Source of the DNA: Pyrobaculum islandicum DSM 4184
GTDB taxonomy: Archaea; Thermoproteota; Thermoprotei; Thermoproteales; Thermoproteaceae
Length of the DNA: 64,000 bases
Direction: 5' to 3'
Assembly: GCF_000015205.1 (NCBI RefSeq)
Contig: NC_008701.1
Coordinates: 1,181,436 to 1,245,435 of the forward strand
The position numbers were made by a program, and so were the translations under genes. This document shows positions 139-58,901 of the stretch, piece after piece (position 1 is the stretch's first letter; each line of letters begins with the position of its first letter). Under the pieces are notes generated by a model. The model did not search any database and was not told where the DNA came from. It saw nothing but the letters and a program-made list of their open reading frames with translations.

Positions 139-805
139 GGATCGTCTCCTTATGCCAGACAGGCTGGAGTTTGCGCATGGGATAATCGAGGAGGTGTTTC
201 CTAAGTACGGGTTGGGGAGGTACTTCATAAAGCAGGGAAAGGTGTTCTGGCGTGATGTGGCATTTCACAGAGCGGTCCCCCTTGACGCTCAATTGAGAGT
301 TGAAAACGAGAGAGACGTGGGCAGAGCGGTCTTCGTCGACCTCAAGAGTGGCGTTGTTAGAGTGCGGCGACTACAGAGGACGTTCACAGTTCGTCTTAGG
401 AAACAGACCGTCGAGTGGATTAGGCGGAGGTTGGAAGAAGACGCCAAGCTCAAGTTGGCGTTTCTTGGCATAGAGAAGCGGAAGGACAGGAAGGAATTAA
501 CATACGGAAAGCTCTATATAGCGCTTGTCTTTGCTAGAGAGGCCCAACCGATCATGTCGAAAGCTATCGTCGCCGTGTATGTCAACCGCCTAGACCACGG
601 CATGGTGATCGGCGTTGTAAAAGACCGAAAAATTGTGAAACGATATAGGATGAGAGAAGTGGGAAACAGACATATGCAGTGTCTCACTCGTGGCCTCAAC
701 GACGCACGTAATAACATCCCCATACACTGGGCAAAGAGGAGGTATTGGGAGTTGTTGGAAAAGACTAAACAACCCGCTTTCCCCCGGAGACCACCACACT
801 TTTAA
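139..805 (+). pseudogene. tnpB: Truncated, internally deleted TnpB (family A)
   Basis: The frame aligns with the intact TnpB at 27150-28397 from that protein's DRLL segment to its C-terminus, but it has lost the first ~60 residues and a central block of about 150. The N-terminal half (FAHGIIEEVFPKYG, FVDLKSGVVRVR) is clear. At RuvC-I the motif reads VAVYVNRLDHG, so the catalytic Asp (VDVNRL in the intact copy) is Tyr. Soon afterwards, around 650-690, it jumps to the last ~30 residues (DARNNIPIHWAKRRYWELL). RuvC-II and the whole zinc ribbon are missing, so it cannot be an active RNA-guided nuclease. An ATG at 95 would translate the inverted right-end fragment and is not a real start. The 3' end and downstream guide-RNA-like region are retained. 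Confidence 0.85.
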
Positions 806-965
806 ACTCGTAAGTTTCTTCACTCATGAACCAACCGGCCCTGGGAACCGGCCGACTCCGCCGAGCCCGTCCGCGCGGGCACGGCCGGTTCCCCCTGTCC
901 CCCGCGGCCCGAAAGGGCGTCGGCGGGGGCGGGCTCGGAGTCTCCAGGGAAGGTCGGCGTCGTGA
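783..965 (+). ncRNA. Candidate omega-RNA / right end, family A copy 1
   Basis: The last codons of the tnpB relic run into a GC-rich block of nested inverted repeats (CCGGCC...GGCCGG, CCCGCGGCC, GGCGGGGGCGGG). The block starts with a conserved AT-rich lead (ACTTTTAAACTCGTAAGTTT, then TTCACTCATGAACCAACCGG) also found at 4090-4140 (minus) and 28380-28425. In TnpB systems the guide (omega) RNA is transcribed from the 3' end of tnpB through the right end. Conservation of this segment even beside a dead nuclease fits that, but a simple structural right end would look the same. Confidence 0.5.
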
Positions 966-989
966 AAAGAGGGTACATTAAAGAAATGT

Positions 990-3383: not shown

Positions 3384-3483
3384 TTCCTAGAGTTTAAATC
3401 TCTTAATGCTAGGAGAGCTCTCTTAAACAGCTTACGAAGGCGGCCACCAGATCTATGAACTTCTCTCTTTTAGTACAGCCTCC

Positions 3484-3622
3484 TTTGTTACACCGGCCCT
3501 CTCCGGGCCCGCGGGTACGCCTTTTGGCGGTCGCTGGCGTGGAGGTCCGGCCGTGCCCGCGCGGACGGGCGTAACGGACTGCAACGCCAGTCGATCCCTA
3601 AGGCCGGTTGGCTCATAGTAAA
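3484..3622 (-). repeat. Orphan right end / candidate omega-RNA, family A copy 2
   Basis: On the minus strand this segment has the family A right-end order: the TGAGCCAACCGGCC lead, paired GC-rich arms (GCCCGTCCGCGCGGGC, GGCGTTGCAGTCCG), and the terminal GGGCCGGTGTAACAAAGGAGG. No tnpB coding sequence is attached: the bases before it, 3623-3700, do not read as a TnpB C-terminus. It is a solo right end and a possible stand-alone guide RNA. A passive relic is equally possible. Confidence 0.5.
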
Positions 3623-3934
3623 GAAAGACTTGACCTTTAGCGTCCCATATGTGTACATGTGCATATATGTGGTGGGGGTGATATCTCTACTAGTTATAAG
3701 GAGCACGCGAGGGTATCCAGCCGCGAAGATGGCGAGGACAACCACATCATCGCAACATCGGCATTGCCTATGCGACAAACTGAAACAATTCCCTCTTCCG
3801 CATCCCATTTGTTCTCTGTTTTCCCTTCTATATTTTCACTACCTGACATTGAGAGCCTTAAACGTCAGGTGATGCTTTTGTATCGACACAGACGCATATA
3901 CCGCCGTTTTTATGAAGATTAAGGTTTAGAAGAG
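3623..3934. other. Spacer between two right-end copies, no gene supported
   Basis: Small open frames here (for example 3630-3872) show no codon bias or recognisable motif and overlap one another in several frames. The composition is closer to average than the GC-rich right ends on either side. No promoter or RNA signal stands out. Confidence 0.4.
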
Positions 3935-4218
3935 GTGCGATATGCCCCCCTTTGTACAACCGGCCTTCCCCGGGGGGCTCGGGGCTCGCCCCCGCCGGAC
4001 GCCTTGGTGGGCGGGGCGGGGGCGGGGGGCCCGGCCGTGCCCGGGCGGACGGGCGCGCCAGATGTAACAGTCGGCCGGGGCCCCAAGGCCGGTTGGTTCA
4101 TGAGTGAAGAAACTTACGAGTTTAAAAGTGTGGTGGTCTCCGGGGGAAAGCGGGTTGTTTAGTCTTTTCCAACAACTCCCAATACCTCTTCTTGGCCCAT
4201 ATCAGCGGCACGTTGTCT
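3935..4218 (-). pseudogene. tnpB: TnpB C-terminal remnant with right end, family A copy 3
   Basis: On the minus strand, 4218-4120 encodes only the last ~32 residues of a family A TnpB (RDNVPLIWAKKRYWELLEK), nearly identical to the tail of the relic at 139-805. It continues into the same 3' right-end block: the ACTTTTAAACTCGTAAGTTT lead, GC-rich arms, and a terminus near 3945 followed by GCATA. The coding part stops abruptly at about 4218, so the nuclease is gone while the guide-RNA-like part is complete. 4219-4372 shows nothing recognisable. Confidence 0.75.
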
Positions 4219-6940: not shown

Positions 6941-7121
6941 AGTTCAAAAACTGTCCTGGGGTGGCAGATAATGGTGCTGGACTGACGTCTGACTCTGCGC
7001 GAGCTATCCACTCGTTCCGGTGTATCTGGGCGAGCTCGTAAGTCTCCCAGGGAGGGGCCGGGGAAAAGATAGGGACCTCTACTTGATCAATAGTTTTAAA
7101 AACTTAGTGATAAGACCTACG

Positions 7122-11808: not shown

Positions 11809-12066
11809 CTCTTCACACAGAATAAAAACTCGTACAACTATTATGTACCATTCTGTGATGTTGTGTGCCGCATCTGAGATGTGACGACAAACCTCCGGCT
11901 GACGTGGGGAGAAGCTCCCTTTGTTACACCGGCCCTCTCCGGGTTAACGGCTGATGCCATAAGAGTAGCAATAAAATAACCCCGTCTTTACTTGCGTTAA
12001 TCATTGGGCTTTACAAAAACTCAAATCCGACAATAGACGCCACTGGGAATCCAGAACTATGGGCTT
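11809..12066. other. Spacer with a solo right-end tip
   Basis: No gene seen. It contains the 30-bp family A right-end tip described separately at 11915-11945; the rest is of ordinary composition. Confidence 0.5.
11915..11945 (-). repeat. Solo 30-bp tip of the family A right end
   Basis: CTTTGTTACACCGGCCCTCT is shared exactly with 3484-3510 and 25377-25400, always in the same strand orientation. Outside this core the three sites differ. It is either the minimal relic of an element or a recurrent insertion/recombination target. Confidence 0.6.
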
Positions 12067-19878: not shown

Positions 19879-20261
19879 TGTCTGCACGCCCCCGTCTGCC
19901 GCCTTAGGGGGCTGGACGTCGTTCATGAGATAGGTGTAGTTACGAAGTTAGCCTAGCGGGGTCCACGAGATGTCTCACATACCTCTCGTGGGCGTAGGTG
20001 AGCTTCCCCAGATGATCCACATCCCCCTACCTCAAAGACGTATGTGGCAACTATGGGCTCGCCCCCGAGAAACCTCGCCACCCCCTCCATAGGTTCCCAC
20101 TTCATCCCCATGGATAGGCTAAGCTAATGAGCCGGCCGGCGCCAACACGCGTGACGACGCCGGATTTACGTCGGCGATAGACCCCCGTGGCTCTCCTCCC
20201 TCTGCTACAGACACAGGCATAGGTGGAAGTGCTGGGGTAAAACACTTCACTTTGGCGCAAA
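19879..20261. other. Spacer, no gene supported
   Basis: Overlapping short frames in all six readings with no coherent coding signal. It may be further decay of the upstream membrane protein locus. Confidence 0.35.
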
Positions 20262-23990: not shown

Positions 23991-24104
23991 AGGGGGCAGA
24001 GGGAGGGAAGCGAGGGGCCAAGAGAGAGATAGGGGGATGAGATGTGTTGATAGCCATTTTATATAGGTCTGTCAAACTATATATACACCTCTTTTATCTA
24101 ACCT
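23991..24104 (+). promoter_or_regulatory. Spacer and MFS gene promoter
   Basis: TATA at about 24077-24085 (CTATATATAC) lies ~24 nt before ATG 24105. No other feature is seen. Confidence 0.5.
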
Positions 24105-25374: not shown

Positions 25375-25430
25375 TCCCCTTTGTTACACCGGCCCTCTCT
25401 GGGAGGGCGCGCCCGGAGCTGTGGCCCCGG
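25375..25430 (-). repeat. Solo tip of the family A right end
   Basis: Same CTTTGTTACACCGGCCCTCT core as 3484 and 11917, directly after the MFS stop codon. The GC-rich arm continues for ~30 bp more before similarity fades. The rest of the gap to 25555 holds only a GC hairpin (CCGCCCCTATAGGGGGCGG, about 25474-25492). Confidence 0.55.
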
Positions 25431-25555: not shown

Positions 25556-26280
25556 GTGCTTTGGTTTATCTTAACCACTGGGGCTTGCAATCTCAAGTGT
25601 AAATACTGTGGGGGCTCTTTTGACAACAACTACTCCCCCTGGAGGCCCAAGATTACGGCAGGGGAAGTCGTTAATTTCATAGCGCAGAGAGATAGAAAGC
25701 CCATAGTCTTTTTCTACGGCGGCGAGCCTCTACTTAATGTCCAATACATAGTAGACGTCCTAAAGGCTTTGCCCAACGCGCGTTTTGGCATACAGACAAA
25801 CGGAACGTTTGTGAGAAGGCTCCCGCCCGAAATCTGGCAGAGGTTCTCCACTGTCCTCCTCTCCATAGACGGGCCTCCGGAAGTCACTGATTACTATAGA
25901 GGGCCTGGGGTGTATAAAAGAGTGGTAGAGGCTTTGAAATGGCTTAAAGACGATGTGAGGTGTAAGTGTAAAATCGTGGCGAGGATGACTGTTGCGAAGA
26001 GGTCGGATATATATAGAGACGTCACCCACCTCTTAGCCCTCGGCTTTGATGCAGTACATTGGCAACTAAATGTCATATGGACAGACGAGTGGACACCCCG
26101 CGAGTTTTTAAATTGGGCCGAAGAGAGCTACCTCCCCGGCGTTAAAAAGCTGAGAGATCTCTTTCTCGCGGAGGCCGAGAGGGGAAGGGTGTTGGAAGTG
26201 ATCCCCATCCTCGGCATATATAGAGCCCTTTTGATAAGACCCTACAGCTGGGTTCCCTGCGGGGCGGGGAGGTACGCCTT
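25556..26280 (+). pseudogene. Radical SAM/SPASM peptide-modifying enzyme, 5' part, interrupted by a TnpB element
   Basis: N-terminal ~240 residues of a radical SAM protein: ILTTGACNLKCKYCGGSF (CxxxCxxC at 11-18), FYGGEPLLN, GIQTNGTF, LLSIDGPPE, and VPCGAGRYA where the SPASM domain starts. A TATA (CATAAATAAA, 25529-25538) fits GTG 25556. At 26280, just after GGTACGCCTT, the frame leaves the family sequence. The SPASM half resumes at 28577, 2.3 kb on. Overall order and the TEVIP terminus resemble the archaeal AF1577-type putative peptide-modifying enzymes. The truncated product keeps the SAM cluster but lacks the auxiliary clusters. Confidence 0.88.
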
Positions 26281-26368
26281 GACAGCGCGATCGAGACGGT
26301 TTATGTCAATGGTAACAACGGCCTTTGGCTCCACCAACGCTGTCTCGCGAGCGAACTCGATAACCTAA

Positions 26369-26394
26369 CACGCAAACTATTGCTTGTTTGCGTG
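26369..26394. repeat. Perfect 9-bp hairpin at the TnpB break
   Basis: CACGCAAAC-tattgctt-GTTTGCGTG. It abuts the point where the inverted TnpB fragment stops matching (after DRLLT), so it may mark the recombination junction or an element end. Confidence 0.65.
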
Positions 26395-26579
26395 AGAAGT
26401 CTGTCTAGCTTCTCCGTCGTGAGTCTGGGCTCCTCCTGCCCCGTAACCTCTTTCAACAACCTTCTGACGTACTCCTCAACGGCCAAGTGCATTCTTGTCA
26501 CAAGGTCAAGGACGTCCGGCCGTTCCTCGACGAGGCGCCAGGGGATTCTGATCTTCAGTGTTCGGTAGGCTTGGCTCAT
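26383..26579 (-). pseudogene. tnpB: TnpB N-terminal fragment (family A), inverted
   Basis: From ATG 26579 the minus strand encodes AYRTLKIRIPWRLVEERPDV...EEYVRRLLKEVTGQEEPRL...DRLLT, ~62 residues matching the N-terminus of the intact copy (AYRTLRIEIPWKLIEERPDV) at roughly 80% by eye. It then breaks off. The missing remainder begins at the same codon at which the relic at 139-805 starts. Confidence 0.85.
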
Positions 26580-26770
26580 ATGCGTAAAGGGCGTGGGGGA
26601 GAAAAGCTAGGTGTTGAGACTCCGTTGTGGGCGGGTAGGGCGCCGGTCTTGGGGAAGCTGTCGCTGGGTAAACGGGGAAGCCGCGATCAATATCCGCCAG
26701 GCGGCGTCTGCAATGTATGCGGTAGCTTCACACCTCCCCCGCCACATGCGCGAAAAAGCCAGAGACGCCC

Positions 26771-26856
26771 TTTCAACTATTTCGACTCACCTGCCTGACA
26801 GCGACGACGTAAGGCAGGTGAACCGAGGGAGTTGAAATTGTGAAAGGACTACGTTA
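26771..26856. repeat. Long imperfect palindrome in the element's left part
   Basis: The core TCACCTGCCT (26787-26796) pairs perfectly with AGGCAGGTGA (26812-26821). Outer arms CCTTTCAACTATTTCGAC and GTTGAAATTGTGAAAGG extend it imperfectly. This is possibly a left-end hairpin or an operator. No CRISPR-like repetition is present. Confidence 0.55.
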
Positions 26857-27149
26857 GAGGTGTGGGTGGGTTAAAAACGAGTTTGTTCTATTGTGGTTTT
26901 CACCATAAGCGCCGCCAACATTGCAATTATCGGCACTGGTATGAACAACGCGAGGGGCGGCGTATGACGCCGGCGGGTGTCAACACGTTGCTAGCGACGG
27001 CAACAGCCCTAGTGGCGGCGGAGGTCAACAACATGGCCGGCACGCGTCTCTCAACGTCGGCGCCGTGGGTTTGTCTTGTAAAACTTTTGGCCTGCCCCCA
27101 TGCGCCTTTTATAACCAACAGAGATTTCAGCCACTCCACATACAAGGCC

Positions 27150-28397
27150 ATGTACGCATACAGAACGCTGAGGATAGAAATCCCCTGGAAACTCATCGAA
27201 GAGCGGCCAGACGTCTTAGACCTAGTGACGCGTATGTATTTAGCCGTCGGGGAATATGTAAAGAGACTGCTTAAGGAGTTGACGGGGCAAGAGGAGCCGA
27301 AGCTAACTACGGAGGAGCTAGACCGCCTGCTTACTCCCGAGAAGCGGGAGTTGGCGTGCAAGATCATTGAAGAGACCTTTCCCAGGTACGGGCTTGGGAG
27401 GGCTCTTGTGAGATATTCCAAGTTTCTCTGGCGCGACGTGGCGTTCTACCGGGCAATCCCCCTCGACGTCCAACTGAGGGCCGAAAACGAGAGAGACGTG
27501 AGTACGGCGGTCTTTGTCGACCTAAAGAGTGGCGTCGTTAGAGTGCGTAAGCTCGGCATACCGCCTTTCGCCGTCGAGTTGAAAAAGAGCGACATCTCTT
27601 GGATTAGGCGAAGGTTGGAGGAGGGCGCCAGACTCAAGTTGGCGTTTCTTGGCGTTGAAAAGAGAAATGGTGAGAAGCCGACCTATGGAAGACTCTACGT
27701 TGCTCTTGTCTTCGCCAGAGAGGTGACGCCAGTAGAGCCCAGAGGTATTGTAGTTGTTGATGTAAACAGGTTGGATCACGGCATAATGGTGGGTGTTGTA
27801 AAAGACGGCAAGATTGTCAAGCGGAAGAGGCTACCCGACGAACGCGCGGTGAGGAAGCTGAGAAAACTCCACGAAGAGATAAGTCGCCTTGAGGAGCGGG
27901 CCGCCAAAGAGGCGGATCCCGCTAGAAGGGGTCAGCTTGAGGACAAAGTTAATCGTCTCAAGTCCAAACGGTATAGGAAGATCCGCGACGTCGTAGCGCG
28001 GATCGCAAAGGAGATAATCGAGCTCGCCAGACAGAACAACGCCGCCGTCGTGGTGGATACGATAGAGGAGAAGACGTATTCGGCGAGGAAGCAGAGTGGC
28101 GAAAGCGGCGATAGGAAACACCTCTACGACGGGCTTGGCCAGCTGAGGAAGCGCCTACAAGCGCTAGCGCAATGGTACGGGCTGCCGTATATGGAGGTGC
28201 GTCTCTATAGTACAAAGTGTCCAAGGTGTGGTGCGAAGATGGTGGAGGAAAGAAAGCGCATAATGCGTTGCCCCTCCTGTGGCTTCAGCGATACACGCGA
28301 CAACATCCCGCTACTCTGGGCCAAGAGGAGGTACTGGGAAATCCTCCAGAAGATAAAACAACCTGTTTTTTCGCCCATCAAACTTTTAACCTCGTAA
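27150..28397 (+). CDS. tnpB: TnpB RNA-guided nuclease, apparently intact (family A)
   Basis: 415 residues. The WED/REC-like N-terminus AYRTLRIEIPWKLIEERPDV is followed by RuvC-I IVVVDVNRLDHG (Asp), a charged bridging helix (RLEERAAKEADPARRGQLED), RuvC-II AAVVVDTIEEKTY (Glu), the zinc ribbon TKCPRCGAKMVEE...RCPSCGF, and RuvC-III SDTRDNIP (Asp). All three catalytic acids and four Cys are present. ATG 27150 aligns with the other copies. The frame is open upstream to 26862, but that part is not conserved. TTTTATAAC at about 27108-27116 may be its promoter. TnpB cuts DNA next to a TAM, guided by RNA made from its own 3' end. Confidence 0.9.
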   Translation: MYAYRTLRIEIPWKLIEERPDVLDLVTRMYLAVGEYVKRLLKELTGQEEPKLTTEELDRLLTPEKRELACKIIEETFPRYGLGRALVRYSKFLWRDVAFYRAIPLDVQLRAENERDVSTAVFVDLKSGVVRVRKLGIPPFAVELKKSDISWIRRRLEEGARLKLAFLGVEKRNGEKPTYGRLYVALVFAREVTPVEPRGIVVVDVNRLDHGIMVGVVKDGKIVKRKRLPDERAVRKLRKLHEEISRLEERAAKEADPARRGQLEDKVNRLKSKRYRKIRDVVARIAKEIIELARQNNAAVVVDTIEEKTYSARKQSGESGDRKHLYDGLGQLRKRLQALAQWYGLPYMEVRLYSTKCPRCGAKMVEERKRIMRCPSCGFSDTRDNIPLLWAKRRYWEILQKIKQPVFSPIKLLTS

Positions 28398-28576
28398 GTT
28401 TTCCTCTTCCATGAGCCAATTTCCCCGGCCCTGGGGGCACGGCCGATCTGTTGCGCCCGTACACACGGGCACGGCCGTGCCCCTCTCGCCTCCGCCCCGC
28501 CCGTTAAGGGCGTCTGGCGGAGACGGGCCCCGAGCCCCCGGAGGAGGGCCGGGCGCCGCTCTTTGGAAGGGGGCAC
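28370..28576 (+). ncRNA. Candidate omega-RNA / right end, family A copy 4
   Basis: Overlaps the last codons of the intact tnpB and continues 180 nt past the stop. Paired GC-rich arms (GGGCACGGCC/GGCCGTGCCC, CGCCTCCGCC/GGCGGAGACG, GGGGCTCGG/CCGAGCCCC) form a plausible long folded scaffold. The guide would start immediately after the right end, at or near 28577, and so would read radical SAM gene sequence. Confidence 0.55.
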
Positions 28577-28954
28577 GGTACGCCTTTGCCATAAACACAG
28601 CGTTTTTGCCATAAATACAGATGGGAGGATTCTCCACTGCCCCATTGCAGTTTCGGAAAAGTGGGCTACCGCCGGCCACATAAAGACTGGGCTCAACGGC
28701 GTGGCGCCACGCCTAAAGGACAAGTGTTTCTTCTGCGAATATAGACACGTCTGCGGCGGCCGTTGTCTTTATACTCACTATGAGAACTACTGGGGCGAGG
28801 AGGGCTTTGATGCAGTATGTATGGTAACGAAAAAGACGATTAAAATATTGGAAGAGGAGGCCCCCGGCTGAAGAGACTTGTCAACGCCGGGGTAGTAGAG
28901 GAGGAGCGGTTAGAATACGACCCTCTTTTAGATTCCACAGAAGTTATACCATGA
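28577..28954 (+). pseudogene. Radical SAM/SPASM enzyme, 3' part (SPASM domain)
   Basis: Resumes the interrupted gene: VFAINTDGRILHCPIAVSE, KCFFCEYRHVCGGRCLY (SPASM auxiliary-cluster cysteines), then IKILEEEAP. Two more lesions follow. A 20-bp imperfect tandem repeat (28581-28600/28601-28620) shifts the frame right after the junction. At 28862-28868 the C run appears one base short: the frame stops at 28871, whereas the +1 reading continues LKRLVNAGVVEEERLEYDPL to STEVIP and a stop at 28954, the expected family C-terminus. Confidence 0.85.
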
Positions 28955-58463: not shown

Positions 58464-58901
58464 ACTGGAGTTTGTCAAGTCACACCTCAAGTGAGATGTA
58501 TTGCCTTCCTGAGTTCTGAGACTCAGGGAATCCGCAACCTCTCCTATTTCGAAACGGCTCGCTCGATCCAGGGACGGCGCCAAGTTGTTATATTCTGACG
58601 TCTGTCTTAGGTAGGCCGTCCCTTGCCTTAGTACATCCAAGGCGGAAGTCCTCCGGGGATGTGCCAGGAAAGAGATGGGGAGATATGCACATTTAGCATT
58701 TGTCCAAAGAGAAGCTGTGGTATAGTATGAACATAGGTCGCTAAGTTTTTACGCTTAGCGTATAGATTGCTTGGTGATGTGAAGCGGCTGCAGGCGGAGT
58801 TGTGGCGAAGATGGGAAGAGCTGATGTCTATTAGTTTTGTGTCATGGCAACACTTGACATGTTGTAAGATTAAGCTTTTATATTGGGAGATATATAGATA
58901 T
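58464..58901. other. Hairpin-rich spacer before the DUF131 gene
   Basis: Contains three clear inverted repeats: CCTGAGT-6-ACTCAGG (58508-58527), GGGACGGC-36-GCCGTCCC (58571-58622) and CGCTAAG-8-CTTAGCG (58739-58760). The first may end the pantoate kinase transcript. The second encloses 36 nt and could be a small RNA. CTTTTATATTG (58875-58885) is a TATA before GTG 58902. Confidence 0.45.

What the first reader, a model, noticed from the sequence alone, without database searches (positions are those of the whole stretch)
25556..28954. Radical SAM/SPASM gene split by a 2.3-kb TnpB element with a 10-bp direct repeat at both ends
The N-terminal SAM half ends at 26280 and the SPASM half resumes at 28577. 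GGTACGCCTT occurs immediately inside the host gene on the left and at the right junction. IS605 and IS607 elements normally make no target duplication, so a 10-bp direct repeat is unexpected for a TnpB element and suggests another transposase acted in trans or a recombination event. The intact tnpB may still cut empty alleles of this very gene.
Basis: partly seen in the sequence, partly recalled or inferred. Interest (0 to 1): 0.7.

Follow-up and report, generated by a model that had tools for sequence, protein, structure and literature searches.

The report
One-ended TnpB insertion with target duplication
In a heat-loving archaeon, a radical SAM enzyme gene is broken by a TnpB mobile element, and copies of the same family elsewhere in the genome show that these elements keep one exact end, lose the other at varying points, and often duplicate 8-10 bases of the target, which the known transposition routes of TnpB elements do not do.

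Summary
A TIGR04084 radical SAM/SPASM gene, uninterrupted in relatives, is split at 26280; GGTACGCCTT lies at 26271-26280 and 28577-28586, and empty sites carry the stretch once. Two things were missed. The right flank is rearranged: 24 bp of host sequence, then CGTT, then bases 9-24 of that host sequence again, so the in-frame SPASM half resumes at 28605. And the insert begins inside a truncated, inverted second tnpB, not at an element left end.

The genome has about 20 full-length tnpB paralogs and over 100 fragments. Placed against empty sites in a sister species, or against truncation points, they share a signature: right end fixed (..AGGGG..C), left ends all different, and an 8-10 bp direct repeat at six of 40 insertions (at most 7 bp in 1,560 mismatched pairings). 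Others have no duplication or a target deletion. Carrier genomes lack Y1 transposase and reverse transcriptase; their one serine recombinase is a syntenic chromosomal gene. So the repeat is a real target duplication, and insertion looks one-ended at a staggered break. What makes that break is unknown. TnpB's RuvC-II glutamate reads as aspartate in all aligned paralogs, so cleavage is unproven.

The parts
25556..26280 (+). N-terminal (radical SAM) half of the TIGR04084 gene
26271..26280 (+). left copy of the 10-bp direct repeat GGTACGCCTT (host bases h1-h10)
26281..26579 (-). inverted, truncated second tnpB ('short-upstream' type): a piece around RuvC-I fused by deletion to the N-terminal ~72 codons; closest to other loci (88% to L074), among the least like its own partner (74%)
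26771..26837 (.). imperfect palindrome between the two head-to-head tnpB genes, found at the same place in other copies
27150..28397 (+). full-length tnpB (about 415 aa from ATG 27150; TNB zinc finger present; acidic RuvC residues D, D, D)
28398..28574 (+). right end (RE), conserved among 20 copies, ends ..AAGGGGGC; putative omega-RNA scaffold
28575..28576 (+). two bases (AC) that are neither host nor conserved RE
28577..28600 (+). host copy A, h1-h24 (GGTACGCCTTTGCCATAAACACAG); the right copy of the 10-bp repeat is 28577-28586; would be the TnpB guide
28601..28604 (+). four extra bases CGTT between the two partial host copies
28605..28871 (+). host copy B starting at h9 and the in-frame C-terminal (SPASM) half of the gene

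Best explanation
This is one insertion of a TnpB-only mobile element family that has multiplied in this Pyrobaculum genome. Shown: the incoming copy is joined to the target exactly at its RE, while its other side simply stops, here inside an inverted partner tnpB, and the target gene was duplicated by 10 bp (GGTACGCCTT). Inferred: the target was opened with an 8-10 base stagger, RE was joined to one side, the other side was joined to wherever the incoming strand ended, and filling the stagger made the repeat (one-ended insertion). The enzyme that makes the stagger is not identified. A second break and repair on the right, before, during or after the insertion, re-duplicated h9-h24 with CGTT between; it left the gene out of frame, so losing the insert alone would not restore it.
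For: Empty sites in the sister genome G009 (and G008) fix the edges at about ten other loci: RE end always at ..AGGGG..C| to within a few bases, left ends from -186 to about -970 relative to the tnpB start and all different. Direct repeats: L080 10 bp (this locus), L079 9 bp (empty site of equal length), L070 8 bp (confirmed by the empty site), L074 10 bp, L133 10 bp exactly at the truncation point, L171 8 bp; 6 of 40 real pairs have 8 bp or more against 0 of 1,560 mismatched pairs. Of 40 fetched tnpB fragments 33 run to the RE end with their 5' side cut at varying points (chosen mostly as C-terminal pieces); 9 of 10 RE remnants in the window keep the 3' part. No Y1 transposase, no reverse transcriptase; the serine recombinase is syntenic and present in 29 of 31 genomes.
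Against: Only a minority of insertions have a legible duplication; L075 and L071 have none, and L072, L073b and L069 have target deletions. L074's left edge was set partly by the repeat itself. No enzyme is identified, and DDE transposases were not scanned for genome-wide. Some short solitary fragments may be decay rather than insertion ends.
Confidence: 0.56

Rival explanations
1. TnpB-cut and abortive gap repair: the element first inserted cleanly (no duplication), TnpB then cut an empty sister allele inside the protospacer, and repair from the right flank copied RE and part of the element before stopping and being end-joined to the left stump, which still held the first ~10 protospacer bases.
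For: It predicts a fixed right end, variable left end, and left repeats that begin at the guide start with variable lengths and deletions, as seen. The second duplication here ends at h24, within the archaeal SisTnpB1 target-strand cut range of 20-28 nt with 5' overhangs (PMC10640517). TnpB-triggered recombination is described (PMC11870625).
Against: No copy with an intact, shared left end was found, although some should survive. Repeat ends at 9-12 nt past RE are shorter than the 15-18 nt non-target cut of SisTnpB1. The RuvC-II glutamate is D. It does not explain how each site was first entered.
Confidence: 0.2
2. Mobilisation in trans by a DDE transposase that makes 8-10 bp duplications and acts on a single RE-like end (one-ended transposition). 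This names the enzyme class that the best explanation leaves open.
For: The six repeats are in a narrow 8-10 bp range, as for a defined stagger.
Against: No terminal inverted repeat at the left edge, no shared left-end bases, several insertions with 0 bp or deletions; no such enzyme was identified, though it was not searched for genome-wide.
Confidence: 0.15
3. Target-primed reverse transcription of the tnpB/omega-RNA transcript (LINE-like): fixed 3' end, 5' truncation and short duplications come from RNA-templated insertion.
For: The pattern of fixed 3' end, variable 5' ends and 8-10 bp repeats is that of such elements.
Against: No RVT_1 domain in any of the three carrier genomes; the inverted partner tnpB and palindrome would have to be part of the transcript.
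Confidence: 0.05
4. Ordinary IS605/IS607 insertion without duplication, with the repeat due to chance or later rearrangement.
For: TnpB elements normally move this way, and L075 and L071 have no duplication.
Against: Recurrent repeats at junctions, no Y1 enzyme, no shared left end, no consistent motif left of the site.
Confidence: 0.03

Closest known systems
tnpB-only (IS1341-type) members of the IS200/IS605 group, e.g. solo tnpB elements of Sulfolobus islandicus
   Same: single tnpB followed by a conserved RE and a variable flank that would serve as guide; no tnpA
   Different: S. islandicus solo elements have conserved sequence at the left end and an AT-rich TTTAT motif (PMC10640517); here left ends are all different, no such motif is seen, and 8-10 bp duplications occur
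ISDra2/IS608 (IS200/IS605) peel-and-paste transposition
   Same: TnpB with the RE scaffold at its 3' side
   Different: these make no target duplication and use TnpA acting on both ends (PMC8612924); no Y1 enzyme here
IS607
   Same: carries TnpB, no terminal inverted repeats
   Different: serine transposase and no duplication (PMC6188088); the only serine recombinase here is a syntenic chromosomal gene
One-ended transposition of Tn3-type transposons; 5'-truncated non-LTR retrotransposons
   Same: one fixed end, random other end, short target duplication (from general knowledge)
   Different: no related enzyme found; resemblance in pattern only

Membership tests
IS200/IS605 element | TnpB with RuvC and TNB zinc finger | tested here: met
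   PF07282 hit above cut-off; NF040570 guided_TnpB E=3.5e-26 but 92.4 bits against a cut-off of 100
IS200/IS605 element | RuvC catalytic D-E-D | tested here: not met
   D at RuvC-I and RuvC-III kept; D instead of E at RuvC-II in all aligned paralogs, by motif inspection
IS200/IS605 element | Y1 (HUH) transposase in the element or genome | tested here: not met
   PF01797 absent in G000, G009, G016; controls ring. tnpB-only members lack it by definition in the element
IS200/IS605 element | no target duplication; fixed left and right ends; fixed motif left of the insertion | tested here: not met
   8-10 bp repeats at several sites, variable left ends, no common motif
IS607 element | serine transposase encoded next to tnpB | tested here: not met
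   single Resolvase gene, syntenic and in 29 of 31 genomes
non-LTR retroelement | reverse transcriptase | tested here: not met
   PF00078 absent in the three carriers
DDE transposon | terminal inverted repeats | tested here: not met
   left edges share no sequence with RE or each other
DDE transposon | DDE transposase in the genome acting in trans | not tested
TnpB omega-RNA | conserved structured RE abutting the guide | tested here: inconclusive
   RE conserved to the guide boundary; consensus fold weak, 4 of 15 pairs with double changes

The most novel reading that the evidence does not exclude
A TnpB-only element family that spreads without any TnpA by one-ended insertion, with the RE (and perhaps TnpB with its RNA) defining the only functional end and a staggered target break giving 8-10 bp duplications: a copying route for TnpB elements that I did not find described.
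Probability: 0.25. Interest if true: 0.88.

Novelty: new variant of a known kind. Interest (0 to 1): 0.6.

Why it matters
TnpB genes without a transposase are common, and how or whether they move is an open question. Here one 1.8-Mb archaeal genome holds a series of insertions whose empty sites survive in a sister species, and they show a recurring signature that the IS605 and IS607 routes do not give. That makes the question of TnpA-independent spread of TnpB testable in one organism.

Tried and rejected
Local snap-back origin of the inverted tnpB fragment was rejected: it is 74% identical to its own partner and 88% to another locus. The serine recombinase present in all three carriers was first suspected as the transposase and rejected because it sits in conserved synteny and occurs in 29 of 31 genomes. 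Non-element DNA between repeat and element at L070 (449 bp) could not be traced to another place. A consistent TAM could not be read from the pre-insertion sites. No relatives of this TnpB turned up in the GTDB contig scan, whose patterns are strict and which may leave out near genomes. No paper on these elements in P. islandicum was found in the held library.

Full report
Where it is. The window is part of a single-contig genome of 1,826,402 bp, by size and by a Pyrobaculum-specific RNA most likely Pyrobaculum islandicum DSM 4184 (identification by size is from memory). The broken gene is a TIGR04084 radical SAM/SPASM gene: the left half matches model positions 1-230 and the right half 231-318. 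Close relatives carry it uninterrupted, with VPCGAGR(H/Y)AFAINTDGR across the break. No second full copy was found in this genome.

The junctions. I number host bases from the repeat: h1-h24 = GGTACGCCTTTGCCATAAAYACAG. On the left the host runs to h10 and then enters the insert. On the right the RE ends ..AAGGGGGC, then AC, then h1-h24, then CGTT, then the host again from h9. Relatives have the stretch once. So the 10-bp repeat is a duplication relative to the empty site, and a second, partial duplication of h9-h24 sits on the right. The first right-hand copy reads into a stop at 28612, and the extra 20 bp shift the frame.

What the insert is. From right to left: RE, a full-length tnpB, its upstream region, a palindrome with 29-bp arms, and then an inverted, truncated second tnpB that ends abruptly at the host. 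This head-to-head layout recurs at several other loci (L061, L063, L066, L071, L074, L078). The two partners belong to different types, one with a short and one with a long conserved upstream stretch. The fragment here is 88% identical to L074 and only 74% to its own partner, so the pair was not made at this locus.

The family. The genome has about 20 full-length or nearly full-length copies and over 100 fragments. Among 30 relatives I found 4 strong matches each in G009 and G016, and only 42-45% matches in two others. The paralogous proteins align with few broken frames. The first RuvC aspartate and the RD of RuvC-III are kept, but RuvC-II has D where TnpB has E. Rearranged RuvC-II sites can be active (PMC10278001), while a non-canonical triad does not permit cutting in Cas12m2 (PMC10442227 abstract). 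Activity is therefore open.

Empty sites. Right flanks of 14 copies were searched in G009 and G008 and the edges aligned. Where they could be placed, the host resumes within a few bases of the conserved ..AGGGG..C end of RE. The left edges are all different. Duplications: L079 TACATACTA (9 bp; the reconstructed site has the same length as the G009 site), L070 CTAGGCAC (8 bp), this locus (10 bp). L063 has a 13-base near-repeat with one mismatch that I do not count. No duplication: L075, L071. Target deletions of roughly 11-27 bp: L073b, L072, L069. L074 has TATGGGTTGC (10 bp) at its left edge but no alignable empty site.

Fragments as a second test. For 40 further stretches around tnpB fragments, chosen mostly for C-terminal pieces, I took the place where element homology stops as the left edge. 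Thirty-three of them run to the RE end. L133 has TGGGATTCCT (10 bp) exactly at the edge, L171 TGACCGCC (8 bp) within six bases of it. Over 40 insertions in all, six have a repeat of 8 bp or more at the edge; pairing right flanks with the left edges of other insertions gave none above 7 bp in 1,560 tries. A caution: for L074, and by four bases for L079, the repeat itself helped to place the edge. N-terminal pieces also exist in the genome; many are the inverted partners just described, and I did not follow all of them.

What could do this. No Y1 transposase and no reverse transcriptase were found in the three genomes that carry the family. The single resolvase-type gene is in conserved synteny and also in genomes without these elements. 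IS605 and IS607 insertions make no duplication (PMC8612924; PMC6188088). The simplest reading is a one-ended insertion at a staggered break. I could not identify the enzyme, and I could not scan for DDE transposases. The main rival is a TnpB cut of an empty allele followed by abortive repair; the second duplication here, which ends at h24, fits the known target-strand cut range of an archaeal TnpB (20-28 nt), but the 10-bp stump is shorter than its 15-18 nt non-target cut, and no copy with an intact common left end was seen.

Can this tnpB still cut? Its guide, if the RE-flank rule holds, is h1-h24. In 31 genomes that sequence occurs exactly only here; orthologs in G009 and G003 differ at three positions, other relatives at more. 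No empty allele exists in this genome. The claim is untested.

Verdict. It is a new variant of a known kind of element, with an insertion signature worth a specialist's attention and an unknown mechanism.

Noticed in passing
window 3960-4114 and L063 4350-4504 (oriented): About 155 bp of RE are identical (two single-base indels) between two copies far apart in the genome, while the coding part upstream and the last ~15 bases before the guide differ: a sharp conversion tract confined to the RNA scaffold.
   Followed up: partly
window 799-966, 3478-3626, 3944-4128, 7008-7074, 11914-11943, 19879-19945, 24009-24038, 25376-25411, 58646-58683: Remnants of the same RE are scattered through the window, nearly all keeping the 3' end; one lies about 150 bp upstream of the broken radical SAM gene.
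   Followed up: partly
L070 2240-2688 (oriented): 449 bp of non-element DNA with a short ORF lie between the 8-bp duplication and the element, absent at the empty site in G009; possible captured flank or cargo.
   Followed up: partly
L137 and L166: Fragments with an RE at both outer ends and two tnpB C-terminal pieces joined head to head, without visible target duplication.
   Followed up: no
tnpB paralogs in L061-L080: RuvC-II glutamate replaced by aspartate in all aligned paralogs although frames are conserved.
   Followed up: no
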